In this document: in pieces, positions 14,393 to 64,000 of the stretch
Position numbering within the stretch: the stretch's first letter is position 1
Layout: each line of letters begins with the position of its first letter
Assembly (NCBI GenBank): GCA_037576195.1
Contig: CM075103.1
Coordinates: 23,560,001-23,624,000, forward strand
DNA from: Phytoseiulus persimilis
Lineage: Eukaryota > Arthropoda > Arachnida > Mesostigmata > Phytoseiidae
DNA length: 64,000 nt
Direction: 5' to 3'
The notes under the pieces: generated by a model
The model's database searches: none
What the model was told of the DNA's origin: nothing
The model's input: the letters and a program-made list of their open reading frames with translations, nothing else
Made by a program: the position numbers and the translations under genes

Positions 14393-14393
14393 G

Positions 14394-26949: not shown

Positions 26950-27023
26950 CCGAGTGTTGATTACCTAGATTACATCCTACATATCATGACTACCTAATAT
27001 ATGTACAGCATATTTGATTTTAC

Positions 27024-27746
27024 CTATGACCACTCAAATTTGGCGGGCTCTGTCCAGTGGTTAGGAGGAGAGTCACTCCTCCCCTCGTAGAGGAATGAAT
27101 CGAACCCAACATCTCTTTTGATGAAGAGCTTGAAGAAATCGACACTTTCCACTGGGGCCGGGCAGCCCTCCCTTTTGTCTCTTCTACTTCTGAATAGTAG
27201 CATGAAGTTGATGTGGTCAATCAACCACTGGATGATCAGTCCTCTTCCGACACACTGAATTGTCTTTTTGAAGTTCCGGGATTCTCCTTCCCATCTTCGT
27301 TGGATTGATCTCTCTGATGGGAGAACTTCATGGGTCACTGCCATGTAGAATGACAGCCCGTACAGGTACGCGTCGTAACCTGTGAGTGTGTCGGGTCTGA
27401 ACTCATCCGTGAGTTCAGCCTCTGCAATCTTGGTTTCGAACCATTGTCTCAATGGCTCTGGCATGTCCTCTATCTCATTTGACAGGGCTGTCCGGTCAAT
27501 GATGTCCCAGTTGTTAATATACTGGCCTCCAAGGAAAGTATTCGTATTTTTCCCTGATAGGTGAAGTGGTGAGTCAATCTTACACTCACCGGATTCGCAC
27601 CTACATGCCATGAGTCCGTCAAGATCTTTCACCTCTGGGAGGTGTGCGAAGCGTAGTGCTAATCTGTTGTAGCGGATGCGGTGCGCTGTGATGTCCAACT
27701 GGGGTGATGCCATGACGAAGACTTTTCTACAGGTTTCAGAGCACAA
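27024..27746 (-). CDS. Accessory protein next to 3' LTR, unknown function (element A copy)
   Basis: This is a 240-residue frame in the sense of the element, ending about 80 bp before the polypurine tract. A second copy at 57568-58290 has the same length and about 90 percent identity. The start may be the internal MASPQLD (residue 12), since the copies agree strongly from there. Features: a Cys cluster CRCESGEC at about residue 48, an aromatic stretch (YDAYLYGLSFYMAVTHEVL), a semi-hydrophobic helix (RGLIIQWLIDHINFMLLF) followed by RSRRDKREG, and a C-terminus ending WTEPAKFEWS. There is no signal peptide or clear TM. I recognise no family. A TATA-like TATAAAG lies upstream at about 27825 on the minus strand, so it may have its own promoter. 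Confidence 0.7.
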   Translation of the reverse strand: MCSETCRKVFVMASPQLDITAHRIRYNRLALRFAHLPEVKDLDGLMACRCESGECKIDSPLHLSGKNTNTFLGGQYINNWDIIDRTALSNEIEDMPEPLRQWFETKIAEAELTDEFRPDTLTGYDAYLYGLSFYMAVTHEVLPSERSIQRRWEGESRNFKKTIQCVGRGLIIQWLIDHINFMLLFRSRRDKREGCPAPVESVDFFKLFIKRDVGFDSFLYEGRSDSPPNHWTEPAKFEWS

Positions 27747-28289
27747 AATTCACTATGGAAGGCCGACGTCTTACTACCTTGAAGGTTTTCTTCAGTATGA
27801 GCTTGTCTTTGAACTTTTCTGCTTTATACGAACTGCCCTCTATGGGTCAGAGGCCGGGCTGTGGTGTGCCCCTTCGACGTGTTGTTCGGCTGTTCAAAGC
27901 ATTCTTTATGTTCTCACGAATGTTTGATACCGACGAGTAGGTATTAACACGAGACCGCTGTTTTCTATCTCTTTGAAAACAGCATCTTTGTTATTAGAGG
28001 CACTCGTGTATATGTTCCCTTGTTTTTCCGAGTCCGAGTCGCTCAAGTTCTAAGCACTCAATCCTCTGATCGATATTTTTACAGTAGACTTGTCTAAATA
28101 GTCTCGTTTATCGGAATTTTTCAGTCGAGGACTGCTTGTTCTGTTCCGACATTGGAATCAGGGCTACTAATCATAACGAACGATTAGAGGGGGAAAGTCT
28201 AGACCCTTTATCACCAGTATCTGAGGTCATGAGGCCATCACAACTCCTCACGAACTCTGGTCAAACGCTCGTTTGGTCTCCACTGTATC
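27747..28289. promoter_or_regulatory. Divergent intergenic region of the accessory module (element A)
   Basis: This region separates the minus-strand 240-residue gene from the plus-strand coiled-coil gene, which point away from each other. On the minus strand a TATAAAG box at about 27825 precedes the minus gene. On the plus strand TTTTTCAGTCGAGGAC at about 28116 contains TCAGTC, a good arthropod initiator. The element C equivalent (58291-58834) is well conserved, including TTCAGTCGAG. A bidirectional promoter is inference. No other gene is present. Confidence 0.5.
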
Positions 28290-29875
28290 ATGGATCCGAA
28301 CCAATTGCCGTACAGTGTTGTTCCATCACCATCACCACCGCCTCGCTTCAATCATCCTCCAGGTATTCAATCTCCCGTTCCAATGAACTACACTGGTTAT
28401 CGTCCTCCGGTGCCAGTTAATGTTCATGGGGTTCCTATGCCTGTTCCTGTGACACCTGGTCAAATGTTGTTCATCCCAACAACGATGGGAACGTTGTGAC
28501 TGTGAACGTCCAGGAATCAGGACTCGTATCCGAGTATGGGAAGCTACTCATGGATCGACTTGTTCAAATGGAGAATGCAGTCTCCATTTATCAAAGTGAA
28601 GCTCTCGCCATCCCCAATTCAAACATTGATATTGGAGTGCTTCATGAGGAAGTCAAAATTCTTCGCTCCAATCTCGACACCTATGCCGAGAATTTCTCCA
28701 GTCTTCTTACTCAGCTCAATGCATTTGCTAAGTGTGTTCCCAAGACTGCCGCTCTTGATGAGGTCATCAAGTCCATGGGTCAAATTCATGATCAGGTACA
28801 GGACCAAGGATTGGCCATCAAAATGACTCGTACAAGTCATAGTGGACTCTCTGATCGTCAAACTGAATTTGCGTCAAAAATGGCCACAATTGAACAGATT
28901 CAACTTGTCCATGAAATGATTGCCAGTGTCCGTACTGACGTTGCCAAGGTTGTAAGTCAGGTTGGAGTCATGTCCTCCAAAGATCGTTCTCCCGACTCAT
29001 CCACCACGGGGAATGTTGATTCCCTGACGCGAAGCATTGCTGAATTGAGGGACAACATTCATCGTCTTGAGAACAAGATCATCACGGTCGATAAGTCAGC
29101 CAAGAAGCATTCTGAGATAAACTCAAGAAACATCAATGAGGCGCTCACCAAGATTACACTTACCGAGTGCTCACTCAAGTCTCATGATGATGCCAGCAAG
29201 ATGAACTGGGCAGCGAACTCGGGAAATCTCCAAGAAGTTCGCGATCAACTCGCACGCAATAGTGCCGCCGTTGCCAACATCCTGGTGTCGCTGAACGAGA
29301 TCTCAGCACATGTGGACCGAGTTTACACGATGTGTAATAACTTACAAACGAACCAGTCATCATTCGAAGAAGAGCATGAAGATATACCACCACCGCCGCC
29401 TGCTCGAAGGAGATTTTTGATTCGTCTATTTCAAGAACTTCTGAACTATGTTCTCACATGCAGAGGGTGCTGCATTTTTCTCATTCTTCTACTGATTATG
29501 GGTATGTATTTCACCCTTCTAGAACTATCAGCAATAAATTTCTGATGGGGTCTTATAAATCAAATCTCCTTTCTTCTAGTTGGAAGTATCTCCTTCGGCA
29601 TCTACCGCATTCATCACGCCGGTGGTGTTGTGGTGACCTCCTCAGCAATACCTGACCTCTCCGATGACGACTCAATCGTTCCCGCGAGTGACCCACCCCC
29701 AGTGATTCAGCAGCGTCCTGTGAACCGCACAGGACTCGTCAAGAAGTCAGATTCGGAAAATGTTGTTCTTCGCGACTATGGATGCAAACGTAACCCTCAG
29801 GTCTCTGGATGGATATGTATTCATGAGACCTCTAAGGCATGCTTGAGTGTTCCCGGCAATAAGCCAGTTACCTAA
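28290..29875 (+). pseudogene. Antisense coiled-coil membrane protein gene, damaged copy (element A)
   Basis: This gene runs opposite to its element and is the counterpart of the intact copy at 58835-60499. It begins MDPNQLPYSVV with a Pro-rich head, then is thrown out of frame near 28463 by a one-base loss (ATGTTGTTC versus ATGATTGTTC in C). The long coiled-coil part continues at 28496-29501. A 78-bp GT-AG intron (29502-29579) follows inside the TM codons, and exon 2 ends early at a TAA at about 29873 where C has CAA. So this copy has two independent lesions. The role is unknown. Confidence 0.75.
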
Positions 29876-30225
29876 ACAGTCCTGTGTACTCACACTATTG
29901 ACAATAGTGTCTGTGGTGTTGGCAAGTCCACCACTGTTTGTAGTCGTGTTTGATTTTACGCCTGTGGTTAGGCGGTTTTTAATTCGAAACCTCAATCACT
30001 TTCAGACCGTCACTTGATCTTTGGATGTCGACGTCTGTATCTTTTGATGAGCTTGATTGTATTGGCAACGAAATAAATCAAAACATTGGCTTGGAGATAT
30101 GGAATCTTGTATTTCTGTGTTTTCGTAACACACGATGGCTCCTCCCCCTTTTCTCTATAGTCGGTAATACTCCGTTTCGTTCTGGCATTTACTGCCATTC
30201 ATCGGCCTTCCAATCAGTCGTTAAG
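29876..30225. other. Spacer between the two antisense genes (element A)
   Basis: This holds the former end of exon 2 and a leader for the next gene. A short stem (CGCCTGTGGTTAGGCG) occurs at about 29958. No other frame is supported. The open frame reaching back to 30025 is probably leader rather than coding, since copy C starts at the equivalent of 30226. Confidence 0.4.
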
Positions 30226-31536
30226 ATGCAGGTCCGCGTTTCAAACAGTGCGAGTATTGCTTTTGTATGTTCAGTTTCCATGTGTCTGTTGTTCATTTGG
30301 ACAATCATCCTGCATATTGGAAAACCTGACTCAGTGTCCAAATCAGGAGCGAGTGTAGTAACCTCTTTACTCTCCTCAAATGAGTCTTCTGAACCTGAGC
30401 GTGACTATGTGAGGGTGACCATCGATTCATCATTCCGTTTTTCTTCTCCCAGTTCTGGTGTATTACCCACGGAACCCAACGCTGATGCCCAGGTTAGTGT
30501 GGGCATGAGCAATGCTCCACCACATTCTGAACATCATGTACCATCTCCATCGCTTGCTCCATCTTCAATGGAGCCGTTCCGCACTGCCTCGACTCTGCAT
30601 CCAACGTTCAGAACTGAACTTTCAACAAGTGCACCTATATTTACGACAAAGACCTCCGTCTTTCGTCCCTCCACTGCTCAACTCTTGATGGAGCTGAGGG
30701 AACGCTTGTTCACCGAGTCGGGTCAACAACCCGATCGCATTCCTGATCGGTACCACCGATCTCCAGTTCGGTCACAACGACCAATAATCCACGGTAGTCC
30801 CTTTTCTAAGCCTATGAGTGTGAGTGTCACAGCTCCACCACCCATGTCATTTGAGAATGCTGCATCTTCAAATCAACATTTATCTCAGCGTGGCCTGAAT
30901 GGACAATCAAGAGTTTCCTCTAATTTTGACCTCCAAGGAAGTGATTCTAACTTATCATCAGTCAGAATGAACCCACGGACGGCTTCTAATCCTTCAACAC
31001 CGTCATTGCATTCGTTCACAACGACCACTTCCTCAACCACTCGGAAACCAATGATCAAAGGCATGGCCTCAACAACTACCTCAACAACAACGACTACATC
31101 AAAACCAGCCAGCAAGCCATCAACATCCACCATGACCCAGGAGTCTTCATCCGAGAGCCTTTCTCTCAGTACCACGGTCTCACCAATTGCTGATGAGAGT
31201 CCTGTACAGAAAGTGGCAGCCTCTTCCACTGAGACATCATCAATAGAGGTCCCTTCAGAGTACTCAAAGCCTCAACTGACCACCACCAGTGTTCCGCCGC
31301 CTGAAGTTCTCCCCATGCTCTTTCACATACCTTCCAACAGATATCAATGTGAAATCATTTCATACAATCGATTATGCAGATCTATTGTAGATCGGACATG
31401 TGTTCTTGTAAAACGGATGACCAGACTCAATCATTATCTATCTGTTGTCCCATACAAGAAAGATGATCATGTCCTGGATGAGGAACATTCAAAGATTCTA
31501 CAGGTCTGTGATGGTCATCGTAACTTCATTGCGTGA
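30226..31536 (+). CDS. Antisense mucin-like type II membrane protein (element A copy)
   Basis: Opposite in strand to element A. From the ATG at 30226 (MQVRVSNSASIAFVCSV) it encodes about 436 residues, colinear with 60772-62082. A hydrophobic segment at residues 9-30 lacks a cleavage-like end and would act as a signal anchor. There follows a long Ser/Thr/Pro-rich stalk, including TTTTSSTTRKP and STTTSTTTTTSKPASKPSTS, expected to be heavily O-glycosylated. A C-terminal domain of about 90 residues has Cys residues (RYQCEIISYNRLCRSIVDRTC, then VCDG). An upstream in-frame ATG at 30025 is less likely because copy C has no equivalent open frame. The layout resembles attachment glycoproteins, but I found no family signature. 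Confidence 0.7.
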   Translation: MQVRVSNSASIAFVCSVSMCLLFIWTIILHIGKPDSVSKSGASVVTSLLSSNESSEPERDYVRVTIDSSFRFSSPSSGVLPTEPNADAQVSVGMSNAPPHSEHHVPSPSLAPSSMEPFRTASTLHPTFRTELSTSAPIFTTKTSVFRPSTAQLLMELRERLFTESGQQPDRIPDRYHRSPVRSQRPIIHGSPFSKPMSVSVTAPPPMSFENAASSNQHLSQRGLNGQSRVSSNFDLQGSDSNLSSVRMNPRTASNPSTPSLHSFTTTTSSTTRKPMIKGMASTTTSTTTTTSKPASKPSTSTMTQESSSESLSLSTTVSPIADESPVQKVAASSTETSSIEVPSEYSKPQLTTTSVPPPEVLPMLFHIPSNRYQCEIISYNRLCRSIVDRTCVLVKRMTRLNHYLSVVPYKKDDHVLDEEHSKILQVCDGHRNFIA

Positions 31537-31587
31537 AAAGTAAATTTTCAATTTGAACCATGAGAGGGTCATTCATTTTACTATGAG

Positions 31588-32154
31588 TTAAGTATTCATA
31601 ACAGTTGAGCTGTATGGAGATTCAGGGCTTGGTTCCTCTCTCGAATCTGGTGGCTGTTCTGTTTCAAGCCGCTGATACGCACGTCGGCGTAAAATCTGAG
31701 TTGTGCAAGCGAACAAGCTGTACATCACATAGAACAGTACAAGTACAGTCAATATGCCTGCATATAGATTAATGAAATTCAGTCCATTCGCTGGAGCCGG
31801 GACTGTCTGAGGTGGCCCGCTGTGGGTAAAGTTGTAATTATCTATCCAGATGTCTGATCCACCCTGAACTTTTCCGTCTGGATGCATACACACAACCCTA
31901 GGTGATGCTAATTCCTTACATGCATCGTTCGAGTCAATGCAATCTACCGGGAAAATTTCTGGATTACGTTCGTATAATGTGCATGGTTGTTTCAGTCGGA
32001 TGCAGATGGGCGTGCAATCTTTAGCGTATTCGAAGTACGCGGCGACCTTGGTCGCCATCATGATTGTGATCATGAACATCTTCAGTTGCATCTTTTCTGT
32101 AACCGGCAAGATTTCGTAAGCGGACGAATTGAGTCTTGAAATCTCCATTTTCAA
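31588..32154 (-). CDS. Type I membrane surface-like protein overlapping end of pol (element A copy)
   Basis: A frame in the sense of the element, starting within the end of pol. It encodes a signal peptide (MQLKMFMITIMMATKVAA), a Cys-rich ectodomain (YAKDCTPICIRLKQPC, CIDSNDAC, VVCMHPDG), an N-glycosylation site (NFT), a Pro-rich stem, a TM segment (LYAGILTVLVLFYVMYSLFAC) and a basic tail (RRRAYQRLETEQPPDSRE). Length from the likely Met before QLKMFM is about 165 residues. The position between pol and the 3' LTR is where retroviral env genes sit, but it is much shorter than known Env proteins and I see no fusion peptide. The upstream start MKMEISRLN exists only because of a local deletion in A. 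Its tail differs from copy C, which has a one-base frame change after RRRAYQRL. Confidence 0.7.
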   Translation of the reverse strand: MKMEISRLNSSAYEILPVTEKMQLKMFMITIMMATKVAAYFEYAKDCTPICIRLKQPCTLYERNPEIFPVDCIDSNDACKELASPRVVCMHPDGKVQGGSDIWIDNYNFTHSGPPQTVPAPANGLNFINLYAGILTVLVLFYVMYSLFACTTQILRRRAYQRLETEQPPDSREEPSPESPYSSTVMNT

Positions 32155-35100
32155 TCTTTTCTCTCAGCCAGAACTCACGAGTCTCAATGTGCTTGGAACG
32201 CCGTGTTACCTGGTTCTCGGTGAGAAGCTGGATACAGGCGGTGTTGTCCACTCGTAGTATCGGTGTGATTGGATACCCAATCTCTCTGAGCAGCCTAGCT
32301 AGCCATAAGCATGACTTTCCCATTTCGCTACAGGCCAAGATTTCACTCTCCATTGAAGAGAGGGAAACACAGCTCTGGCGTCTGGATGACCAGATCACGC
32401 CTGCTCCACCGATCATAATGAAAGATCCGCTGGTGCTTCTTCCTGTTGATCGACATCCACTCCAGTCAGCATCGCGATACGCATTGATACCGTCTGAGAT
32501 GTCTCCGGTATACATGGGTCCTAATGTTTTGGTGCCTGAGAGATATCTCAATACTCGAAGACCAATTTCCCAAAGATGCTTGGTTGGTGCTGCTAAGTAG
32601 CGCGATAGAAACCCAACCGAATAACTGATGTCTCCGCGGCAAGTCACCGAGGCGAACATCAATCCCCCTACTAATTCTCTGTACTTTAAGTTCAGATCAA
32701 TCTTTCCTTCAAATGCAGTTTTTGATGTTGCATCAATGGGGGTGGCAATAGTTTTACAGTTCTGCATTTGGAATCTATCAAGTAGCTCATTTATGTACCG
32801 AGCTTGATTGATCCTGATTGTCCCTCTGTCTGGGGAAACAATGATTCTCAATCCCAAAAGAAACTCCAACTGCTTGGATGTCATTTCAAAGGTTTTCTCA
32901 AGTTCTTTTATAATCTCTTTGTTCAGTTGCTCCCTCTTTGAGGCTATGAGGCAATCATCTACATAGACGAGAACAAAGGCTCTTTTGGGGGGGTTTGAGA
33001 AGTACAGGCATGGATCTTGTGAACTTTGAGTGAGTTGAACTGCTTTCATTTTTAACAAGGTGTCACTCAGCTTTTTGTTGAAACATCTTGAGGCCTGTGC
33101 AGTTCCATAGCATGCCTTCTTTAGCTCACAAATTCTCTTGGTTCCATCTCCGAACCCATCCGGTTGTCGCATATAGTGTTTGCGATCTAACGGAGCTGTC
33201 AGGAAGGCTGTGCAAACATCAGCCTGAACCAAGAAAAGTCTCTCACTTGCCGAGATAGACAATATAGTTCTAATTGTCTCAAAACTCGCTGTGGGGCTGA
33301 ATAGGCTTCCATATTCAATTCCAGGGCGCTGTTGACACCCTCGGACAACAAGACGAGCATTCCTTTTGATAAGTTTTCCATCTTTATCCTTTTTTAAAGA
33401 AAATACCCATCTGTTTGACAGAACATGCTGTCCCGGAGCAGGGTCTACTAATCTATAGACCTCATTCGTTCTGAATGATTCAAGCTCTAATGCCATTGCA
33501 GCATACCATTCATTTTTGAATCTAGAGCGATTCACATCATTCAGGTTCAGTGGCACGCTGGCCTCTTGCTCCATAGAACTATTCAATGTGGATGGAAAAC
33601 CACAGGAAGCAGCATTGGCTTCACCTGCTTGATATCTATCTGGTTTTCTCCTAATTCTTTTACTAGTTCTACTTCCCTCGGTTTGTCCTTCCGTCGCTGC
33701 CGGTACTCTATTTGATGAACTGCGCAGTCCTTATTCTTGGGCAGGCGGGCTCGTGATGACCGAATCTTGTTCGGGAGCTATACCAAGCTCTTTGTCCACT
33801 AGGCGTTCGCTATCCTTTGTGACTCCAACACCTTCTTCATCATCGGTGGGGTCAGTTGGTTGTTGCTCCTCTTCATCTTCTGGTGGTTCTTCTGTGGTTG
33901 CTGGTTTGTCTTCTTTCGATGGTATCGGAGGAAATTTGTTCTTATCATCTTGTAGTGGTGCTGGTTCCTTCACTACGATGTCTGGGATACGATGCACTTT
34001 GGTGGTTCCTTTTTCTAAGACGCGATAGCTGAGTCCGTCATCATCTATCCCTACGATTATTCCAGGGATAGCTCTCTTATCCAGTTTGCCCTTTGTTGGA
34101 TTGATGTTGTAGAACCAACAACGAGTGCCGAAACGACGTACCCTTCCTAGGTATGGTTTGTGATCAGTGATGATTTCGAAGGGTGTCTTCTCTTCTGGTG
34201 ATATGATTTTGATGGTGTTGAGACAAAACGTACCGAATGAAACGGCCTCAGCCCAAGCTGCCTTGCTTAGGTCACGATCGATGATCATTGTCCTTGCAAG
34301 ATCGAGAAGAGATCGATTCAGTCTCTCAGAAACCCCGTTATGCATCGGAGTCCGCGGAGCCGAATAAGAGTAGTCACAACCCGTTGAACGAAGGTAGGTT
34401 TGCAGCCTCTTATTCTGGAATTCGGATCCTCCATCTGAATGCAGGAGATATACCTGTTGTCCGGTTCTTGATTTGAACCACTTCGTGAAATCCACGATTC
34501 GATCATAGACCTCTGTTTTATCACGGATGAAGTACGTTTTTCTAAAACGACTCTTGTCATCAATCAGTGTGATAAAAGCAGTATGTCGACCGTAAGGGGG
34601 TACGCTTACAAAGCATGTGTCGCTATGTATCCACCCGATACGAGGGGAAATCGAGCTTATGGGTTTCGATCGGAAACTTGCTCGATGCATCTTTCCTTTG
34701 ATGCAACTGTCACAACTGACAAAATCGGGGATAACTTCATAGCCTCCTCTTTGTAACAATGCTTTGAGCCAACCAACGTTGATATGAGCGAAACTTCGGT
34801 GCATTTCCATAAGGCTGACCTTCTTCGGGCTCTCGACCTGATGTCCTTCAGGGATATCTTCGGCATACAACACGTATAGTCCGTTTTTACGAGTTGCGTG
34901 TATATTGACTTTTCCTTGAGTCAATATGATGGATTTGCGGCAAACCTGGATCTTGAAGTTGTCATCTGCGAGCTTGGAGACGGAGATCAGATTTCTCCTT
35001 AGCTTGGGAACATCCAGGACTTCCCTCAGTTGGATGGTGTGACGTTGGTTATTGTGCACAAATGTCACACGGACTGTTCCGAACCCAGGAGCGCTCAGGG

Positions 35101-36392
35101 TTCGGGATCCTCCCAATCTGATTTGACGAGCTTGATGATATGGAGTGTATTCTATCATATGATCTTTTGTGTTACTCATATGGAAGTTTGTTCCACTATC
35201 AATGATGTATTCATTTTCTGATGTCATCATGTGAGTCTCCATGGTACCGGCTTCGCAGTTCAAGGCTTCTGTGATGTGAGCACGGCCATAGTTTGCATTG
35301 GCCTGGGTTTGCTGCCTGCGGTTTGATGGACGCTTGCCTGTCCTTTTTGCTGACGACGACTGATGAGAACTACTCGAACCGGGTTGTAAATAGGTGCTGG
35401 AGTGATATTGGTTCTTGCCTTGATGAGGTCGGTTGTTGTAGTTCTTCTTGGGAGCAGTACACTGAGATTTGATGTGTCCCTGACGACCACAGTTATGTCG
35501 TTGTAGTAACTGTGCGACTGGCGTATGTCCTTCTCTGGATTGTACTCTTGCGTCTATGTCCTTTGTTTGACACACGCATTCGGGAATACAGAGCTGTTAC
35601 CTCGTTGGTGTCGAACTTGCCTCTCCTGAGTGCTTCACTTTCTATTGCCAGTTTGAGGTGGGCAAATGATCTTCCAGAGTCCTCTCTGGCTGTGAATGCC
35701 TGTTTGAATGGCTCCCAGTTTGACGGAAGTGATTCAAGGAGAATGGTGATCTTAAGGTCATCTGGAGTTTGAACTCCAAGTGCTTCAATATGACTAGTTA
35801 TATGACTGAAGCGGAAGAGGTTCTCTGATGCTGTTTTGTTCTGCTGGTACTTGTATCCCATGAGTTTTGCCAGAGCCAACTGTTTAAGTCCACCATTGGT
35901 TAGTGAGAACTTTCCAGTAATTAGTCTCCACATTTCTGGAGCGTCGATCGTCAATGAGTTGTGAGCGAAGAGGGACAGTGCGAGTGATGACTGCAGGGAT
36001 GCAAAGAGTGTGCATCGTGCCGCTCGATTCCCAGCGATGTACCTTTCCATCTGCTTCTTTCCCGCTGGTTTGTTTTGATCAACTGGAAGTGGTGGTGCTA
36101 GATTGCCCAAGGTGACGTCGAGTGCGAATGGGTCCGCATCAAGAGCAGCTGGTATAAGCACCTTCCACTCCTTGTAGTTACTGCCATCCAACCTGAGCAC
36201 CACGCCGTTGCGATTACGATGACGCGTGCCCATGTTCAGATCATCTCCAATGCCATCGTCGCTTTGCATGAGGTTCATACCGCTTGTTTCGATTCTAATA
36301 ACCGATGAGCCTGGTCTTGGGTCACCTAAATCACTGTAGCCGTGGGAGCTTGCGGAATCTTCAAGTGTGGCCGGATTCTCTGCGGGATCCAT
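32021..36392 (-). pseudogene. Copia element A Gag-Pol, three lesions
   Basis: Read from 36392 on the minus strand: gag (to 35493), CCHC knuckle, protease (IIDSGTNFHM), integrase zinc region and DDE core (WIHSDTC, LHSDGGSEF, NGVSERLNRS), RT (LVYVDDCLIASK) and RNase H (RDADWSGC and WLARLLREIG). Three lesions are visible by comparison with B and C: a 5-bp loss in the knuckle at about 35495 that shifts frame and removes its first Cys, an in-frame stop at 33731, and a loss of about 66 bp near the end of RNase H at about 32134. The order protease, integrase, RT, RNase H is diagnostic of Ty1/copia. Confidence 0.92.
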
Positions 36393-36531
36393 AGAACTTG
36401 TTGTGTATGCACCGGAATATCACTTTTTGATCACTTCAAAAGTCACAATCAAGTCTACACAGAGTCACACACTTATACACCGCACTATCTGATTAAGAAT
36501 GTTCGCAGATTCAATCGTGCTTGATAAGGAA

Positions 36532-36870
36532 TGTTGGATATTTGGGCTCACTAGCTAGTTGGCGAACAGTCTCAATCTGAAAATGGGTTGAAGATCACGG
36601 CACGAAATAAACAGACAGAGTTTCAGTTAGAAACATCTAGCTCCTCAGAGCTGTGCTTCATTAGCTCTGGTATATATACCCAGGGGAAAGTGCTGTAACA
36701 GGTGGTAAGCAGATCCGAAGCTGGCTTCCCTCCGGATCTGTGTCACGACATGCGAATGCAATTCTGCAAAGTGTCAGAGGTGCGCTTCGTATTCACCTCT
36801 ACCTCTGACCACTGACCGTAATCACACTGACGGGTTTCAGATACCCGCAATATGGCTAAATAATGCATCA
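36532..36870 (-). mobile_element. Copia element A 5' LTR (339 bp), also 3' LTR of a lost unit
   Basis: Same ends and length as 26593-26931. On the left is the primer region and gag of A. On the right, 36871-36888 reads TCCCCCTTTAGATGGAAG, which is the polypurine tract and adjacent internal sequence of the same family. So another unit once lay upstream. Its remainder is replaced by the LTR of copia element D at 36889. Confidence 0.9.
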
Positions 36871-36888
36871 TCCCCCTTTAGATGGAAG
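36871..36888 (-). mobile_element. 18-bp remnant of a third tandem copia unit
   Basis: The minus strand reads CTTCCATCTAAAGGGGGA, identical to the pre-LTR sequence of element C (57476-57493 region) apart from one base. It is cut by the first base of element D's LTR. Confidence 0.75.
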
Positions 36889-41574: not shown

Positions 41575-41579
41575 TGAAG

Positions 41580-53570: not shown

Positions 53571-53584
53571 TGGGGCGGGAAGGC

Positions 53585-57136: not shown

Positions 57137-57475
57137 TGTTGGATATTTGGGCTCACTAGCTAGTTGGCGAACAGTCTCAATCTGAAAATGGGTTGAAGAT
57201 CACGGCACAAAATAAACAGACAGAGTTTCGGTTAGAAACATCTAGCTCCTCAGAGCTGTGCTTTGTTAGCTCTGGTATATATACCCAGGGGAAAGTACCG
57301 TAACAGGTGGTAAGCAGATCCGAAGCTGGGTTGCCTTCGGATCTGTGTCACGACATGCGAATGCAATTTTCCGAAGTGTCAGAGGTGAACTTCGTGTTCA
57401 CCTCTACCTCTGACCACTGACCGTAATCACACTGACGGGTTTCAGATACCCGCAATATGGCTAAATAATGCATCA
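57137..57475 (-). mobile_element. Copia element C, 3' LTR (339 bp)
   Basis: Same ends and length as the A/B LTRs (minus strand TGATGCATTA ... ATCCAACA). Its left neighbour is LINE coding sequence, not a primer site, so this is a true element boundary. The polypurine tract CTAAAGGGGGA lies at 57476-57486. The target duplication should be GAAAC (57132-57136), testable only outside the window. Confidence 0.92.
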
Positions 57476-57567
57476 TCCCCCTTTAGATGAAAGCCGAGTG
57501 TTGATTACCTAGATTACATTCTACGTATCATGACTACCTAATATCTGTACAGTATGTTTAACTTTAC

Positions 57568-58290
57568 CTATGACCACTCAAATTTGGGGGGTTCTGTCCA
57601 GTTGTTAGGAGGTGCGTCGCTCCTTCCCTCGTAAATGAATGAATCGAATCCAACATTTCTTCTGATGAAGCGTTTGAAGAAACCAACGCACTCCACTGGG
57701 CCAGGGCATCCCTCCCTTTTGTCTCTTCTGCTCCTGAACAAGAACATGAAGTTGATGCGGTCAATCAACCACTGGATGATCAGTCCTCGTCCGATACACT
57801 GAATCGTCTTCTTGAAGATCCGGGATTCTCCTTCCCATCTTCGTTGGATTGATCTCTCCGATGGGAGAACTTCGTGGGTCACTGCCATGTAGAATGACAG
57901 CCCGTACAGGTACGCGTCGTAACCTGTGAGTGTGTCAGGTTTGAACTCATCCGTGAGTTCTGCCTCTGCAATATTGGTTTTGAACCATTGTCTCAATGGT
58001 TCTGGCATGTCCTCTATCCCATGTGACAGAGCTCTCCGGTCGATGATGTTCCAGTTTTTAATATACTGGCCTCCAAGGAAAGTATTCGTATTCTTTCCTG
58101 ATAGGTGAAGTGATGAGTCGATCTTACACTCACCAGATTCACATCTGCATGCCATAAGTCCGTCAAGATCGTTTACCTCTGGGAGGTTTGCGAAACGTAG
58201 TGCTAATTTGTTGTAGCGGATGCGGTGTGATGAGATGTCCAACTGGGGTGATGCCATGATGAAGACTTTTCTACAGGTTTCAGAGCACAA
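57568..58290 (-). CDS. Accessory protein next to 3' LTR, unknown function (element C copy)
   Basis: A 240-residue frame, the intact counterpart of 27024-27746. Conserved features are CRCESGECKID, NTNTFLGGQYI, GYDAYLYGLSFYMAVTHEVL, PSERSIQRRWEGES, the semi-hydrophobic RGLIIQWLIDRINFMFLF and the end NWTEPPKFEWS. Differences between the copies are mostly single substitutions and none breaks the frame, which suggests coding. The preferred start is MASPQLD at residue 12, since the first 11 codons could be leader. It is transcribed with the element. No family recognised; a soluble intracellular protein with a zinc-binding Cys cluster is one reading. Confidence 0.75.
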   Translation of the reverse strand: MCSETCRKVFIMASPQLDISSHRIRYNKLALRFANLPEVNDLDGLMACRCESGECKIDSSLHLSGKNTNTFLGGQYIKNWNIIDRRALSHGIEDMPEPLRQWFKTNIAEAELTDEFKPDTLTGYDAYLYGLSFYMAVTHEVLPSERSIQRRWEGESRIFKKTIQCIGRGLIIQWLIDRINFMFLFRSRRDKREGCPGPVECVGFFKRFIRRNVGFDSFIYEGRSDAPPNNWTEPPKFEWS

Positions 58291-58834
58291 AATTCACTAT
58301 GGAAGGTTGACGTCTTACTACCTCGAAGGTTTTCTTCAGTATGAGCTTGTCTTTGAACTTTTCTGCTTTATACGAACTGCCCTCTATGGGTCAAAGGCCG
58401 GGCTGTGGTGTGCCCCCTTGAACGTGTTGTTCGGCTGTTCAAAGCATTTTTTATGTTCTCACGAGTGTTCGATACCGACGAGTAGGTACTAACGCGAGAC
58501 CGCTGTTTTCTATCTCTTTGAAAACAGCATCTTTGTTATTAGAGGCACTCGTGTATATGTTCTCTTGTTTTTCCGAGTCCGAGTCGCTCAAGTTCTAAGC
58601 ACTCAATCCTCTCATCGATATTTTTACAGTAGATTTGTCTAAATAGTCTCGTTTATCGGAATTTTTCAGTCGAGAACTGCTTGTTCTGTTCCGACATTGG
58701 AATCTAGGCTACTAATCATAACGAACGATTGGAGGGGGAAAGTCTAGACCCTTTATAACCAGTATCTGAGGTCATGAGGCCATTACAACTCCTCATGAAC
58801 TCTGGTCAAACGCTCGTTTGGTCTCTACTGCATC
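58291..58834. promoter_or_regulatory. Divergent intergenic region of the accessory module (element C)
   Basis: Counterpart of 27747-28289, with conserved TATAAAG on the minus strand (about 58370) and TTTTTCAGTCGAGAAC on the plus strand (about 58661). There is no gene in it. A GAAAACAGC repeat pair (CTGTTTTCTATCTC and TTGAAAACAGC) at about 58503-58528 could form a hairpin. Confidence 0.5.
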
Positions 58835-60499
58835 ATGGATCCGAACCAATTGCCGTACAGTGTCGTTCTATCACCATCACCACCGCCTCGCCTCAATCAT
58901 CCTCCAGGTATTCAATCTCCCGTTCCAATGAACTACACTGGTTATCGTCTTCCGAGGCCATTTAATGTTCATGGGGTTCCTATGCCTGTTCCTGTGACAC
59001 CTGGTCAAATGATTGTTCACCCCAACAACGATGGGAACGTTGTGACTGTGAACGTTCAGGAATCAGGACTCGTGTCTGAGTATGGGAAATTACTCATGGA
59101 TCGACTTGTTCAAATGGAGAATGCAGTCTCCATTTATCGAAGTGAAGCTCTCGCCATCCCCAATTCAAACATTGATATTGGAGTGCTTCATGAGGAAGTC
59201 AAAATTCTTCGCTCCAATCTCGACACCTATGCCGATAATTTCTTCAGTCTTCTTACTCAGCTCAATGCATTTGCTAAGTGTGTTCCCAAGACTGCCGCTC
59301 TTGATGAGGTCATCAAGTCCATGGGTCAAATTCATGATCAGGTACAGGACCAAGGATTGGCCATCAAAATGACTCGTACAAGTCATAGTGGACTCTCTGA
59401 TCGTCAAACTGAATTTGCGTCAAAAATGGCCACAATCGAACAGATTCAACTTGTCCATGAAATGATTGCCAGTGTCCGTACTGACGTTGCCAAGGTTGTA
59501 AGTCAGGTTGGAGTCATGTCCTCCAAAGATCGTTCTCCCGACTCATCCACCACGGGGAGTGTTGATTCCCTGACGCGAAGCATTGCTGAATTGAGGGACA
59601 ACATTCATCGTCTTGAGAACAAGATCATCACGGTCGATAAGTCAGCCAAGAAGCATTCTGAGATAAACTCAAGAAACATCAATGAGGCGCTTACCAAGAT
59701 TACACTCACCGAGTGCTCACTCAAGTCTCATGACGATGCCAGCAAGATGAACTGGGCAGCGAACTCGGGAAATCCCCAAGAAGTTCGCGATCAACTCGCA
59801 CGTAATAGTGCCGCCGTTGCCAACATCCTGGTGTCGCTGAACGAAATCTCAGCACATGTGGACCGAGTTTACACTATGTGTAATAACTTACAAACGAACC
59901 AGTCATCGTTCGAAGAAGAGCATGAAGATATACCACCACCGCCGCCTGCTCGAAGGAGATTCTTGATCCGTCTATTTCAAGAACTTCTGAACTATGTTCT
60001 CACATGCAGAGGGTTCTGCATTTTTCTCATTCTTCTACTGATTATGGGTATGTACTTCACCATTCTAGAACTATCAGTAATGAATTTCTAATGGGGTCTT
60101 ATAAATTAAATCTCTTTCCTTCTAGTTGGAAGTATCTCCTTCGGCATTTACCGCATTCATCATGCCGGTGTTGTTGTGGTGACCTCCTCAGCAATACCTG
60201 ACCTCTCCGATGACGACTCAATCGTTCCCGCGAGTGATCCACCCCCAGTGATTCAGCAGCGTCCTGTGAACCGCACAGGACTCGTCAAGAAGTCCGATTC
60301 GGAAAATGTTGTGCTTCGCGACTATGGATGCAAACGTAACCCTCAGGTCTCTGGATGGATATGTATTCATGAGACCTCTAAGGCATGCTTGAGTGTTCCC
60401 GGCAATAAGCCAGTTACCCAAACAGTCCTGTGTACTCACACTATTGACAATAGTGCCTGTGGTGCTGGCAAGCCCACCACTGTTTGTAGTCGTGTTTGA
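58835..60499 (+). CDS. Antisense coiled-coil type II membrane protein, two exons (element C)
   Basis: The gene runs opposite to element C. Exon 1 (58835-60047) encodes a Pro-rich head (PSPSPPPRLNHPPGIQSPVP), a long heptad-rich region (residues about 70-370, for example LHEEVKILRSNLDTYADNF and IAELRDNIHRLENKIITVDK), then EDIPPPPPARRRFLIRLFQE and the start of a TM segment (CIFLILLLIM). A 78-bp intron (60048-60125) has GTATGT at the donor and a pyrimidine tract with TTCTAG at the acceptor. Exon 2 (60126-60499) completes the TM (VGSISFGIY) and adds about 115 residues with six Cys. Total about 528 residues. Unspliced, the frame ends 14 codons into the intron. Topology predicts a cytoplasmic coiled coil and external Cys-rich tail. 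Family unknown. Confidence 0.75.
60048..60125 (+). other. 78-bp spliceosomal intron in antisense orientation
   Basis: Donor GGTATGTACTTC and acceptor CCTTCTAG/TTGG, phase 1, joining G with TT to make a Val codon inside the membrane segment. The intron at 29502-29579 in element A has the same length and position. Because the intron is antisense to the genomic RNA of the element, it would not be removed during retrotransposition. Confidence 0.7.
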
Positions 60500-60771
60500 T
60501 TTTACGCCTGTGGTTAGGCGGTTTTTAATTCGAAACCTCAATCACTTTCAGACCGTCACTTGATCTTTGGAAGTCGACGTCTGTATCTTTTGATGAGCTT
60601 GATTGTATTGGCAACGAAATAAATCAAAACATTGGCCTGGAGATACGGAATCTTGTATTTCTGTGTTTTCGTAACACACGATGGCTCCTCCCCCTTTTCT
60701 CTATAGTCGGTAATACTCTGTTTCGTTCTGGCAGTTACTGCCATTCATCGGCCTTCCAATCAGTCGTTAGG

Positions 60772-62082
60772 ATGCAGGTCCGCGTTTCAAACAGTGCGAG
60801 TATTGCTTTTGTATGTTCAGTTTCCATGTGTCTGTTGTTCATTTGGACAATCATCCTGCACATTGGAAAACCTGACTCAGTGTCCAAATCAGGAGCGAGT
60901 ATAGTAACCTCTCTACTCTCCTCTAATGAGTCTTCTGAACCTGAGCGTGACTACATGAGGGTGACCATCGATTCATCATTCCGTTTTTCTTCTCCCAGTT
61001 CCGGTGTATCACCCACGGAACCCAACGCTGATGCCCAGGTTAGTGTGGGCACGACCAATGCTCCACCACATTCTGAACATCATGTACCATCTCCATCGCT
61101 CGCTCCATCTTCAATAGAGCCGTTCCGCACTGCCTCGACTCTGCATCCAACATTCAGAACTGAACTTTCAACAAGTGCACCTATATTTACGACAAAGACC
61201 TCCGTCTTTCGTCCCTCCACCGCTCAACTCTTGATGGAGCTGAGGGAACGCTTGTTCACCGAGTCGGGTCAACAACCCGATCGCATTCCTGATCGGTACC
61301 ACCGATATCCAGTTCGGTCACAACGACCAATAATCCACGGTAGTCCTTTTTCTAAGCCTATGAGTGTGAGTGTCAAAGCTCCACCACTCATGTCATTTGA
61401 GAATGCTGTATCTTCAAATCAACATTTGTCTCAGCGTGGCCTGAATGGACAATCAAGAGTTTCTTCTAATTTTGACCTCCAAGGAAGTGATTCTAACTTA
61501 TCATCAGTCAGAGTGAACCCGCGGACGGCTTCGAATTCTTCATCACCGTCATTGCATTCGTTCACAACGACCACTTCCTCAACCACTCGGAAACCAATGA
61601 GCAAAGTCATGGTCTCAACAACTACCTCAACAACAACGACCACATCAAAACCAGCCAGCAAGCCATCAACATCCACCATGACCCAGGGGTCTTCATCCGA
61701 GAGCCTTTCTCTCAGTACCACGGTCTCACCAATTGCTGATGAGAGTCTTGTACAGAAAGTGGCTGCCTCTTCCACTGAGACATCATCAGCAGTGGTCCCC
61801 TCAGAGTACTCAACGCCTCCACCGACCACTACCAGTGTTCCGCCGCCTGAAGTTTTCCCCATGCTCTTCCACATACCTTCCAATAGGTATCAATGTGAAA
61901 TCATTTCATACAATCGACTATGCAGATCTATTGTAGACCGGAAATGTGTTCTTGTGAAACGAATGACCAGACTCAATCATCATTTATCTGTTGTCCCATA
62001 CAAGAAAGATGATCATGTCCTGGATGAGGAACATTCAAAGATTCTACAGGTCTGTGATGGTAATCGTAACTTCATTGCGTGA
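60772..62082 (+). CDS. Antisense mucin-like type II membrane protein (element C copy)
   Basis: This 436-residue frame starts MQVRVSNSASIAFVCSVSMC. It has a signal-anchor TM at residues 9-30, a Ser/Thr/Pro stalk of about 310 residues with a TTSTTTTTSKPASKPSTS core, a region richer in charged residues near 150-200 (LLMELRERLFTESGQQPDR), and a C-terminal domain with four Cys (RYQCEIISYNRLCRSIVDRKC and VCDG). Its stop (62082) faces the stop of the surface-like gene (62142), only about 60 bp away, so the two transcripts converge. Copy A is colinear with substitutions only. The layout suggests a mucin-like cell-surface or attachment protein. Confidence 0.75.
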   Translation: MQVRVSNSASIAFVCSVSMCLLFIWTIILHIGKPDSVSKSGASIVTSLLSSNESSEPERDYMRVTIDSSFRFSSPSSGVSPTEPNADAQVSVGTTNAPPHSEHHVPSPSLAPSSIEPFRTASTLHPTFRTELSTSAPIFTTKTSVFRPSTAQLLMELRERLFTESGQQPDRIPDRYHRYPVRSQRPIIHGSPFSKPMSVSVKAPPLMSFENAVSSNQHLSQRGLNGQSRVSSNFDLQGSDSNLSSVRVNPRTASNSSSPSLHSFTTTTSSTTRKPMSKVMVSTTTSTTTTTSKPASKPSTSTMTQGSSSESLSLSTTVSPIADESLVQKVAASSTETSSAVVPSEYSTPPPTTTSVPPPEVFPMLFHIPSNRYQCEIISYNRLCRSIVDRKCVLVKRMTRLNHHLSVVPYKKDDHVLDEEHSKILQVCDGNRNFIA

Positions 62083-62141
62083 AGAGTAAATTTTCAATTT
62101 GAACAATGAGAGGGTCATTTATTTTACTATGAATTAAATAT

Positions 62142-62654
62142 TCATAACAGTTGAGCTGTATGGAGATTCAGGGCTTGGTTCCTCTCTCGAATCTGGTGGC
62201 TGTTCTGTTTCAAGCGCTGATACGCACGTCGGCGTAAAATCTGAGTTGTGCAAGCGAACAAGCTGTACATCACATGGAACAGTACAAGTACAGTCAACAT
62301 GCCTGCATATAGATGAATGAAATCCAGTCCATTCGCTGGAGCTGGGACTGGCTGAGGTGGCCCGCTGTGGGTAAAGTTGTAATAGTCTATCCAGATGTCT
62401 GATCCACCCTGAACTTTTCCGTCTGGATGCATACACACAACCCTAGGTGATGCTAATTCCCTACATGCATCGTTCGAGTCAATGCAATCTACCGGGAAAA
62501 TTTCTGGATTACGTTCGTATAATGTGCATGGTTGTTTCAGTCGGATGCAGATGGGCGTGCAATCTTTAGCGTATTCGAAGTACGCGGCGACCTTGGTCGC
62601 CATCATGATTGTGATCATGAACATCTTCAGTTGCATCTTTTCTGTAACCGGCAA
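62142..62654 (-). CDS. Type I membrane surface-like protein overlapping pol (element C copy)
   Basis: The frame overlaps the last 90 bp of pol in another frame. From the probable start MQLKMFM (about 62636): signal peptide, ectodomain with about eight Cys (YAKDCTPICIRLKQPC, CIDSNDACREL, VVCMHPDG), NFT glycosylation site, Pro-rich stem (HSGPPQPVPAPANGLD), TM (LYAGMLTVLVLFHVMYSLFA) and a basic tail starting RRRAYQRL. After RRRAYQRL a one-base difference gives a tail unlike that in A, so one copy is frameshifted. Its post-pol place is that of env genes. Expression would need splicing or an internal promoter. Function unproven. Confidence 0.72.
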   Translation of the reverse strand: MPVTEKMQLKMFMITIMMATKVAAYFEYAKDCTPICIRLKQPCTLYERNPEIFPVDCIDSNDACRELASPRVVCMHPDGKVQGGSDIWIDYYNFTHSGPPQPVPAPANGLDFIHLYAGMLTVLVLFHVMYSLFACTTQILRRRAYQRLKQNSHQIRERNQALNLHTAQLL

Positions 62655-64000
62655 GATTTCGTAAGCGGACGAATTGAGTTTCTGGTAGGGCTTTCGTTCC
62701 CAAATCAGATATATTCAACTCTGAAGGGCAATGGATTATCTTGAAATCTCCATTTTCAATCTTTTCTCTCAGCCAGAACTCACGAGTCTCAATGTGCTTG
62801 GAACGCCGTGTTACCTGGTTCTCGGTGAGAAGCTTGATACAGGCGGTGTTGTCCACTCGTAGTATCGGTGTGATTGGATACCCAATCTCTCTGAGCAGCC
62901 TAGCTAGCCATAAGCATGACTTTCCCATTTCGCTACAGGCCAAGATTTCACTCTCCATTGAAGAGAGGGAAACACAGCTCTGGCGTCTGGATGACCAGAT
63001 CACGCCTGCTCCACCGATCATAATGAAAGATCCGCTGGTGCTTCTTCTTGTTGATCGACATCCACTCCAGTCAGCATCGCAATACGCATTGATACCGTCT
63101 GAGATGTCTCCGGTATACATGGGTCCTAATGTTTTGGTGCCTGTGAGACATCTCAATACTCGAAGACCAATTTCCCAAAGATGCTTGGTTGGTGCTGCTA
63201 AGTAGCGCGATAGAAACTCAACCGAATAACTGATGTCTCCGCGGCAAGCCACCGAGGCGAACATCAATCCCCCTACTAATTCTCTGTACTTTAAGTTCAG
63301 ATCAATCTTTCCTTCAAATGCAGTTTTTGATGTTGCATCAATGGGGGTGGCAATGGTTTTACAGTTCTGCATTTGGAATCTATCAAGTAGCTCATTTATG
63401 TACCGAGCTTGATTGATCCTGATTGTTCCTCTGTCTGGGGAAACAATGATTCTCAATCCCAAAAGGAACTCCAATTGCTTGGATGTCATTTCAAAGGTTT
63501 TCTCAAGTTCTTTTATGATCTCTTTGTTCAGTTGCTCGCTCTTTGAGGCTATAAGGCAATCATCTACATAGACGAGAACAAAGGCTCTTTTGGGGGGGTT
63601 TGAGAAGTACAGGCATGGATCTTGTGAACTTTGAGTGAGTTTAACTGCTTTCATTTTAAGCAAGGTGTCACTCAGCTTTTTGTTAAAACATCTTGAGGCC
63701 TGTGCAGTTCCATAGCATGCCTTCTTTAGTTCACAAATTCTCTTGGTTCCATCTCCGAACCCATCCGGTTGTCGCATATAGAGTTTGCGATCTAACGGAG
63801 CTGTCAGGAAGGCTGTGCAAACATCAGCCTGAACCAAGAAAAGCCTCTCACATGCCGAGATAGACAATATAGTTCTAATTGTCTCAAAACTCGCTGTGGG
63901 GCTGAATAGGCTTCCATATTCAATTCCAGGGCGCTGTTGACACCCTCGGACAACAAGACGAGCTTTCCTTTTGATAAGTTTTCCATCTTTATCCTTTTTT
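62566..64000 (-). CDS. Copia element C Pol, RT and RNase H (runs off window)
   Basis: The frame is open from the window edge to 62566. It has GKLIKRKARLVVRGCQQRPG, the RT blocks FLVQADVCTAFLTAPLD and FVLVYVDDCLIASKSEQL (YVDD), and RNase H with YCDADWSGC, LSSMESEILACSEMGKSCLW, RVDNTACIKLL and ISDLGTKALPETQFVRLRNL. The 66-bp block missing from A (HCPSELNISDLG region) is present. No stop or frame change is seen in the visible part, so this is the best-preserved copy. It is the 3' part of the polyprotein of the A family. Confidence 0.92.
   Translation of the reverse strand, partial: KKDKDGKLIKRKARLVVRGCQQRPGIEYGSLFSPTASFETIRTILSISACERLFLVQADVCTAFLTAPLDRKLYMRQPDGFGDGTKRICELKKACYGTAQASRCFNKKLSDTLLKMKAVKLTQSSQDPCLYFSNPPKRAFVLVYVDDCLIASKSEQLNKEIIKELEKTFEMTSKQLEFLLGLRIIVSPDRGTIRINQARYINELLDRFQMQNCKTIATPIDATSKTAFEGKIDLNLKYRELVGGLMFASVACRGDISYSVEFLSRYLAAPTKHLWEIGLRVLRCLTGTKTLGPMYTGDISDGINAYCDADWSGCRSTRRSTSGSFIMIGGAGVIWSSRRQSCVSLSSMESEILACSEMGKSCLWLARLLREIGYPITPILRVDNTACIKLLTENQVTRRSKHIETREFWLREKIENGDFKIIHCPSELNISDLGTKALPETQFVRLRNLAGYRKDATEDVHDHNHDGDQGRRVLRIR

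What the first reader, a model, noticed from the sequence alone, without database searches (positions are those of the whole stretch)
57476..62654. Copia elements with an ambisense four-gene accessory module
Elements A and C carry about 5 kb between pol and the 3' LTR with two sense genes (a type I membrane protein and a 240-residue protein) and two antisense genes (coiled-coil and mucin-like type II membrane proteins). Seen: all four frames are present at matching positions in both copies, and the two LTR-bounded loci are independent. Known: canonical Ty1/copia elements encode only Gag-Pol; a few plant lineages add one sense env-like frame. An ambisense set of three membrane proteins in copia is not something I know as described. 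Inference: an envelope or cell-surface cassette, perhaps for cell-to-cell transfer.
Basis: partly seen in the sequence, partly recalled or inferred. Interest (0 to 1): 0.93.

Follow-up and report, generated by a model that had tools for sequence, protein, structure and literature searches.

The report
Copia retrotransposons with two-way membrane genes
A large group of jumping genes (copia retrotransposons) in an arthropod genome carries, beyond the usual genes, a conserved set of membrane-protein genes read from both DNA strands, which may help the element pass between cells as a virus does.

Summary
The four-gene ambisense module is real and selected. In the window it lies between copia pol and the 3' LTR in elements A and C: sense type I protein (t1), antisense mucin-like and coiled-coil proteins, sense ~230-aa protein. 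Pooled dN/dS is 0.20 (230-aa), 0.21 (coiled coil), 0.38 (mucin), 0.38 (t1); pol 0.21. It is not confined to one family: t1 hits (identity 22-100%) merge to 138 loci, and the antisense partners sit opposite t1 at 50 of 60 mucin-head and 36 of 54 coiled-coil loci, 0 on the same strand. The antisense genes show gene signals: a predicted 78-nt intron, convergent poly(A) signals, and a slow-changing intergenic region with a TATA-like box. The two antisense proteins share a Cys head. No relatives were found in Pfam (all four proteins) or, for t1 and the 230-aa protein only, in the large protein database. C lacks its 5' half, and neither window copy has all four genes intact. Best explanation: a surface-protein cassette for spread between cells. 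Coding and layout are shown; function, topology and transcription are inferred. No RNA, structure model or other eukaryotic genome was available.

The parts
57137..57493 (-). 3' LTR of element C (~357 nt)
   Evidence: same repeat at 26593-26949 and 36532-36888; this LTR lies next to the 229-aa gene in 13 of 13 copies checked
57568..58257 (-). sense gene, 229 aa from ATG (240 codons from TTG at 58290); weak HMG-box-like hint in one divergent relative
   Evidence: pooled dN/dS 0.20 over 12 copies; HMG-box PDB chains at E 0.02-0.08 for the L073 ORF only
58291..58834 (.). intergenic region between the divergent sense 229-aa and antisense coiled-coil genes; TATA-like CCCTTTATAACC at 58749-58760; candidate two-way promoter
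   Evidence: K 0.118 against dS 0.319 and 0.810 in the flanking genes, C vs L028; motif
58835..60047 (+). antisense coiled-coil gene, exon 1: coiled coil and start of the membrane anchor (ORF as listed 58835-60091)
   Evidence: pooled dN/dS 0.21 over 9 copies
60048..60125 (+). predicted 78-nt intron, GTATGT...CTTCTAG, inside the membrane anchor
   Evidence: same place in A (29502-29579); donor in 8 of 9 other copies scanned
60126..60499 (+). antisense coiled-coil gene, predicted exon 2: rest of the anchor, stalk and Cys head
   Evidence: open frame ending at 60499; head aligned with those of other families
60772..62082 (+). antisense mucin-like protein, 436 aa: N-terminal anchor, Ser/Thr/Pro-rich stalk, C-terminal Cys head
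   Evidence: 34% Ser+Thr in residues 31-365; pooled dN/dS 0.38 over 10 copies
62083..62141 (.). convergent gene ends with poly(A) signals on both strands (ATTAAA for the mucin gene, AATAAA for t1)
62142..62636 (-). sense type I membrane protein t1 of C (frameshifted near the C terminus); its ATG lies upstream of the pol stop codon, so it overlaps pol in another frame
62566..64000 (-). copia pol (RT/RNase H end) of C, running past the window
   Evidence: RVT_2 E 1.3e-28
26593..36888 (-). element A, both LTRs present; 3' LTR shared with tandem copy D
27024..27713 (-). 229-aa gene of A
28290..29543 (+). coiled-coil gene of A (frame broken near the N terminus); predicted intron 29502-29579
30226..31536 (+). 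mucin-like gene of A
31588..32091 (-). t1 of A, open over 167 aa from ATG
21846..22232 (-). t1 of copy D, cut by the LTR of a BEL/Pao element

Best explanation
The module is a conserved ambisense accessory cassette of a large copia lineage, and its most likely job is to make a surface-protein set that lets element particles or RNA pass between cells (envelope-like or contact-dependent transfer). Proposed working: the 5' LTR drives gag-pol and, through a subgenomic or read-through mRNA, the small type I protein t1, whose ATG lies inside the end of pol, as env does in retroviruses (general knowledge). An internal two-way promoter between the coiled-coil and 229-aa genes drives, rightwards, the antisense type II proteins (one a coiled coil inside the cell with a Cys head outside, one a mucin-stalked Cys head) and, leftwards, the 229-aa protein, ended by the 3' LTR. 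t1 and the antisense transcripts end head-on at facing poly(A) signals. The type II heads would be the receptor- or partner-binding part, t1 the partner recycled by its YxxPhi tail, and the 229-aa protein a regulator. SHOWN: gene content, strands, selection, recurrence across families in this genome, intron and poly(A) signals as sequence. INFERRED: topology, transcription units, splicing, complex formation, function.
For: Own-frame pooled dN/dS 0.20-0.38 for the four genes; pol 0.21. Antisense partners opposite t1 at 50 of 60, 36 of 54 and 26 of 34 loci, 0 on the same strand, and at 19 of 42 with 1 same-strand. Six cysteines (each in 20 or 21 of 21), GG..W, Y of YxxPhi (20 of 21) and terminal PY (20 and 19 of 21) kept in t1. 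Antisense Cys-head ORFs read in L051, L052, L053, L071, L072; a TM in the same or the neighbouring antisense ORF in L051, L052, L071, L072. Splice-donor sequence at the same point of the TM in C and L051, whose coiled coils are about 25% identical. Poly(A) signals 1-50 nt after both stops in C, L051, L052. Slow-changing intergenic region. Copia pol end directly upstream of t1 in several diverged families.
Against: No homology to an envelope, fusogen or receptor-binding protein: Pfam and PHROGs for all four window proteins, Pfam for nine t1 members and nine relatives, PDB for t1 and the 229-aa protein, NCBIfam; the mucin and coiled-coil proteins were not run against PDB or the large protein database. 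No fusion peptide or cleavage site was looked for. No transcript evidence. For t1 the within-family test is not frame-specific: the antisense wobble frame is as low (0.33 against 0.38), so its coding case rests on cross-family conservation. The presumed signal peptide of t1 is judged by eye; it does not pass the hydropathy cut used. Poly(A) signals are missing in A (0 of 2) and L053 (0 of 2). In the L070/L073 family the layout is unclear. No structure model could be made.
Confidence: 0.55

Rival explanations
1. The cassette acts inside the cell that makes it: the membrane proteins build or remodel a vesicle or membrane site for particle assembly or export (Arc- or copia-like vesicle transfer) or shield the element from host silencing, with no attachment or entry role.
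For: A coiled coil of over 300 residues before the TM could bind Gag or the cytoskeleton; YxxPhi and PY motifs in the t1 tail suggest trafficking; no envelope homology. Copia capsid transfer across the fly neuromuscular junction is described in a paper seen only in a search listing (PMC11838888).
Against: Two Cys heads on stalks and a mucin domain are typical of exposed, partner-binding proteins (general knowledge).
Confidence: 0.27
2. A regulatory set as proposed for plant antisense ORFs: antisense genes and the 229-aa protein control transcription or copy number, and the antisense RNA matters more than its proteins.
For: Plant Tat-lineage elements have antisense ORFs in the same place, some with predicted DNA-binding domains (PMC7264820, PMC11963269 passages); an ORF resembling the 229-aa protein hits HMG boxes weakly.
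Against: Antisense proteins are under protein-level selection (0.21, 0.38) and have strong hydrophobic anchors; no TRP28 or other DNA-binding domain at the cut-offs used.
Confidence: 0.12
3. The module is a separate virus or transposon, or captured host genes, inserted once into one ancestral copy.
For: No known relatives; such captures occur in other LTR elements (rotifer TelKA env from paramyxoviruses, PMC5408684 passages).
Against: Present in many families with t1 identity down to about 22-30%, in the same place and strands, so any capture is old and the module has since evolved with the elements.
Confidence: 0.04
4. Chance or residual open frames without function.
For: Young pairs (C with L010/L011) have omega near or above 1 in the accessory genes, as expected after insertion; for t1 the antisense wobble frame scores as low as the proposed one.
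Against: Deeper comparisons with C give 0.17-0.55 in the 229-aa, coiled-coil and mucin genes, with pooled wrong-frame values 0.82-1.82 apart from the antisense wobble frame; cross-family conservation.
Confidence: 0.02

Closest known systems
Plant Ty3/gypsy Tat-lineage elements with antisense ORFs (Grande, RIRE2, Retand)
   Same: Conserved antisense ORFs between pol and 3' LTR; in Grande a promoter upstream of the antisense gene (PMC7264820 passages)
   Different: Gypsy, plants; antisense proteins nuclear (Grande) or with TRP28, predicted to bind DNA, and in the Retand set none of the sense ORFs of that region encodes a putative transmembrane region (PMC11963269 passages). Here copia, arthropod, membrane proteins on both strands
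Sireviruses (SIRE1; plant copia with env-like ORF)
   Same: Copia with an extra env-like sense ORF (SIRE-1 title in the reference list of PMC5408684; the rest recalled)
   Different: One sense ORF, plants, no antisense genes (recalled); no sequence relation was tested
MDG1-group gypsy elements with sORF2 (412, Stalker2)
   Same: Insect LTR elements with a small membrane protein used for transfer from soma to oocyte (PMC11952523, abstract and sections 8 and 10)
   Different: sORF2-like proteins are 63-107 aa, four of six MDG1 ones with a predicted myristoylation motif, ectodomain about 30 aa, usually upstream of gag, all in forward orientation; t1 is 167 aa with about 80 residues between its start region and the TM and has antisense partners
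Bdelloid rotifer LTR elements with ORF3 (TelKA, Vesta)
   Same: Extra ORF after pol, some with TM, Cys and coiled coil (PMC5408684 passages)
   Different: A single ORF3 per element in the passages seen; TelKA's is a recognisable paramyxovirus F; no ambisense set described there
Paramyxovirus/pneumovirus type II attachment proteins (HN, G) - resemblance only, recalled
   Same: Type II anchor, stalk or mucin region, Cys-bearing head; acts with a second membrane protein
   Different: No match in Pfam; ambisense retroelement context

Membership tests
Ty1/copia (Pseudoviridae) | copia-type reverse transcriptase (RVT_2) | tested here: met
   RVT_2 E 1.3e-28 for the pol of C; 79 protein hits, most carrying PF07727
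Ty1/copia (Pseudoviridae) | LTR-bounded element | tested here: met
   element A, LTRs 26593-26949 and 36532-36888, 8 of 357 differ; not met for C in the sequence read
Ty1/copia (Pseudoviridae) | integrase before RT in pol | tested here: inconclusive
   read by eye (gag-protease-integrase-like ORFs precede the RT ORF); no integrase profile was run on them
Retroviral or errantiviral Env | homology to a known envelope or fusion glycoprotein | tested here: not met
   no Pfam match for the four proteins or their relatives; PDB searched for t1 and the 229-aa protein only
Retroviral or errantiviral Env | membrane glycoprotein gene after or overlapping pol, sense strand | tested here: met
   t1 ATG inside the end of pol in C and A; pol end directly upstream of t1 in several families; glycosylation itself not testable
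sORF2/FAST-like | 63-107 aa, ectodomain about 30 aa, often a myristoylation motif (as in PMC11952523 sections 8 and 10) | tested here: not met
   t1 is 167 aa, starts MQLK, TM at 102-134
Plant Retand-type antisense ORFs | TRP28 (PF04195) domain in the antisense ORF | tested here: not met
   no such hit
HMG-box proteins (229-aa gene) | HMG-box profile match | tested here: inconclusive
   no Pfam match; the L073 ORF hits HMG-box PDB chains at E 0.02-0.08, the L051 one does not, and the profile of five gives none
Envelope function | surface display, receptor binding, membrane fusion | not testable with these tools
   needs experiments

The most novel reading that the evidence does not exclude
An undescribed clade of copia elements works as ambisense virus-like agents: they encode on both strands a multi-protein surface complex (type I protein plus two paralogous type II Cys-head proteins) with its own two-way promoter, introns and convergent terminators, used to spread between cells. 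That would be the first ambisense glycoprotein set known to me in a reverse-transcribing element.
Probability: 0.4. Interest if true: 0.95.

Novelty: new variant of a known kind. Interest (0 to 1): 0.86.

Why it matters
Copia elements are usually described as gag-pol parasites confined to their cell (general knowledge). A large, diverse copia lineage that has kept a two-strand set of membrane proteins under selection would show a separate route by which retrotransposons gained virus-like surface proteins, and a genome layout (sense replication genes, opposing surface genes, internal two-way promoter) not known to me in reverse-transcribing elements. It makes the question of how non-enveloped retrotransposons leave the cell testable in a new group of animals. 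In the searches made (open-access PMC papers only, listings capped) no paper describing such a set was seen.

Tried and rejected
Homology: large protein database with the 240-codon protein (103 candidates, none at E<=1e-3) and with nine t1 proteins (556 candidates, none); the third and last search went to pol as positive control (79 hits, best 55-56% from 'ena' contigs), so mucin and coiled coil were not searched there. Viral contigs with pol, t1 and coiled coil: none confirmed; a scan with the t1 alignment was not possible. Phages with the 240-codon protein: none. PDB and families: nothing convincing. Rfam and tRNA in the window: none.

Single-insertion, host-gene and chance explanations were rejected. 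The relation of the 229-aa protein of C to that of L051 is weak: BLAST E 6e-4, but the profile score 5.6 was passed by 1 of 500 shuffles (best 8.1; 317 of 500 gave a score), so it rests mainly on position, size and a short motif. Splice acceptor before the t1 ATG: CTTGCAG in L051 and L052, but it also codes a pol motif and is absent in L053, so not claimed. Host: 112 cuticle-protein (PF00379) hits point to an arthropod; no insect odorant-receptor (PF02949) hit, but that family rang in no control either, so it shows nothing alone; species not established. Rows dropped: for the 229-aa co-location I entered 15 of 24 rows and 9 of 13, leaving out mostly short fragments; dN/dS used copies with long matches only, so partial copies were left out (for the 229-aa gene L032, L033, L034, L037 and L044).
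Full report
WHAT IS THERE. Between the end of pol and the 3' LTR, C has: t1 on the sense strand, its ATG at 62636 lying upstream of the pol stop codon (62566-62568); a 436-aa mucin-like ORF on the other strand (60772-62082); a 418-aa coiled-coil ORF on that same other strand (58835-60091); and a sense ORF of 229 aa from ATG (57568-58257), then the LTR. A has the same set. Corrections: C's match to A stops at about 65261 and no 5' LTR was found in the 5,001 bases fetched; no gag/5' pol match is listed near it (40 of 100 candidates scored); the coiled-coil gene of A and t1 of C are frame-broken. Copies with module and gag/5' pol close together in one orientation, by coordinates, besides A: C1:1.950-1.960 Mb, C3:16.477-16.486 Mb, C3:16.519-16.529 Mb and C3:24.202-24.211 Mb. 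The 3' LTR sits next to the 229-aa gene in 13 of 13 copies checked, A and C included.

CODING. Nei-Gojobori counts pooled over all pairs of the copies used give, in the proposed frame, dN/dS 0.20 (229-aa gene, 12 copies), 0.21 (coiled coil, 9), 0.38 (mucin, 10), 0.38 (t1 with A as reference, 10) and 0.21 (pol RT, 6). The other frames give 0.82-1.82, except the antisense frame that shares wobble positions: 0.28, 0.29, 0.54, 0.33 and 0.32 in the same order. For t1 this antisense frame is slightly lower than its own, so the within-family test alone does not single out the t1 frame; its conservation across families does. With C as reference t1 gave 0.46 (antisense wobble 0.40), because C is shifted near the end. 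Very young pairs (C with L010, L011) are near or above 1 in the accessory genes where both counts are non-zero, as expected after insertion. Several copies carry premature stops, as expected of old insertions.

RECURRENCE. t1 is a big family: 150 hits, 150 of 215 candidates being scored, merged to 138 loci; identities 22-100%, open frames mostly about 165-190 codons. Twenty-one aligned sequences keep six cysteines (each in 20 or 21), F, GG..W, one TM, Y in a YxxPhi context (20) and a C-terminal PY (20, 19). Antisense partners were sought apart. Mucin head: 60 loci, 50 with t1 in the expected place on the opposite strand, 0 on the same. Coiled coil: 54 loci, 36 opposite, 0 same. L052-type head: 34 loci, 26 opposite, 0 same. 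t1 loci with such a hit mirror-placed upstream numbered 1, 3 and 5. The 229-aa gene (24 loci entered): 14 same strand as t1, 2 opposite, 8 without. L053-type head: 42 loci, 19 opposite, 1 same, 22 without. 78 of 138 t1 loci have an antisense partner from the first three searches; 19 have one from the fourth, at least one counted in both; the rest have none found. By reading, L051, L052, L053, L071 and L072 show an antisense Cys-head ORF facing t1; a TM is in the same or neighbouring antisense ORF in L051, L052, L071 and L072, not in the L053 ORF. Coordinates place a mucin head opposite t1 also for the L055, L057 and L059 families. L073, of the L070 family, has an antisense TM ORF, but no clear Cys head, and a 229-aa-like ORF lies antisense there. 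So 9 of 10 t1 families looked at show the antisense head. A match to the copia pol end sits directly upstream of t1 in L052-L058, L060, L062 and L063, weakly in L064 and L066 (E 0.013, 0.015); L061 shows an RNase H motif (E 0.22); L059, L065 and L067-L070 gave none in the short stretch fetched. Copies within a family are not independent, so the argument rests on about ten families (pairwise roughly 20-61% identical), not on a binomial count.

GENE SIGNALS ON THE ANTISENSE STRAND. In C the coiled-coil ORF ends just after its TM, but GTATGT (60048) and CTTTCCTTCTAG (to 60125) bound a 78-nt stretch; the frame beyond it continues through the TM into a Cys-rich head that stops at 60499. A has the same sites, though its head frame stops earlier; the donor is in 8 of 9 further copies scanned. 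In L051, whose coiled coil is about 25% identical, G|GTGAGT falls at the same point of the TM (2831), with acceptor-like AG at 2866 and 2916; the second leads in frame into the head ORF. In L052 a GTATGT follows the mucin-gene TM. Poly(A) signals start 1-50 nt after the stops of t1 and the mucin gene in C, L051 and L052 (6 of 6 ends), but not in A (0 of 2) or at the L053 t1 and head ends (0 of 2); none lies within 250 nt after the 229-aa gene in C or A; background 0.30 per strand-kb. The 544-nt region between the divergent genes changes more slowly than silent sites of its neighbours in the deeper pairs: C vs L028 K 0.118 against dS 0.319 (coiled coil) and 0.810 (229-aa); C vs L008 0.090 against 0.170 and 0.259; C vs L004 0.038 against 0.043 and 0.112. 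The closest pair, C vs L002, shows no such thing (0.013 against 0.000 and 0.007). The region holds CCCTTTATAACC 75-86 nt before the coiled-coil ATG.

PROTEINS. With a simple hydropathy cut there is one segment in t1 of A (102-134), one at the N terminus of the mucin protein (5-33), one at the C-terminal end of coiled-coil exon 1 (383-418) and none in the 229-aa protein; the start of t1 does not pass, so its signal peptide is judged by eye. No topology program was available. The mucin stalk is 34% Ser+Thr. Heads of the two antisense proteins share C-x8-C-x7-C in 8 of 9 aligned (C-x10-C-x7-C in the coiled-coil gene of C); a profile of three mucin heads scores the coiled-coil-gene heads of L051 and L052 above all 1000 shuffles each, and those of L071, C, L072 and L053 with 6, 16, 16 and 25 of 1000 shuffles as high. 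So the two antisense genes are probably paralogues. The 229-aa protein has no recognised domain; the ORF of L073 gives three PDB hits, all HMG boxes, at E 0.02-0.08, while L051 and the profile of five give none: at most a hint of a DNA-binding regulator.

MECHANISM. See Best explanation. The layout suggests three transcription units: the 5' LTR unit (gag-pol, t1), an internal rightward unit (coiled coil, mucin) and an internal leftward unit (229-aa) ended in the 3' LTR. This is inference from sequence. The surface-cassette reading is favoured because the membrane proteins carry small Cys-rich domains predicted outside.

COMPARISON. Plant gypsy elements of the Tat lineage carry antisense ORFs in the same place, but nuclear or predicted DNA-binding ones (PMC7264820 and PMC11963269, passages). 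sORF2 of insect gypsy elements is a small transfer protein, always forward (PMC11952523, abstract, sections 8 and 10, passages). Rotifer elements have ORF3s, one type from paramyxoviruses (PMC5408684, passages). PMC12440569 was seen as abstract and outline only. None of what I saw describes an ambisense membrane set in copia; eight searches of open-access PMC papers were made (one search concerned mite genomes), and subscription papers and Repbase were not available.

LIMITS. No RNA, no structure, no eukaryotic genome beyond this one, host species unknown, searches capped. Real ambisense coding module: about 0.97 likely. Surface or transfer role: 0.55.

Noticed in passing
13930-21845: BEL/Pao element (Peptidase_A17 in ORF 14490-18974) with ~463-nt LTRs (13930-14392, 21383-21845, 86% alike); its right LTR ends where copy D of the copia family is cut inside t1.
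   Followed up: partly
26593-26949: One LTR serves both A (3' LTR) and D (5' LTR): a tandem of two internal regions sharing an LTR.
   Followed up: partly
37360-54628: Another copia (gag-pol start at 37360, about 67% like the family here) runs into 69-nt tandem repeats (39301-40050) that code for repeats like the start of Helitron proteins (by eye, recalled); Helitron-like ORFs (by eye, no profile run) follow at 49433-53211, and a 313-nt repeat lies at 40457/49191 (99%).
   Followed up: no
1-1136 and 11464-12624: Direct repeat of about 1.1 kb, 89% alike, 11.4 kb apart: perhaps long LTRs of a further element.
   Followed up: no
L073:3301-3849: In the L070/L073 t1 family an ORF resembling the 229-aa protein lies antisense next to t1 and hits HMG-box structures weakly, a possible rearranged layout.
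   Followed up: partly
L061 (C2:6873620-6874240): An RNase H motif runs straight into t1 in one frame, apparently by an internal deletion.
   Followed up: no
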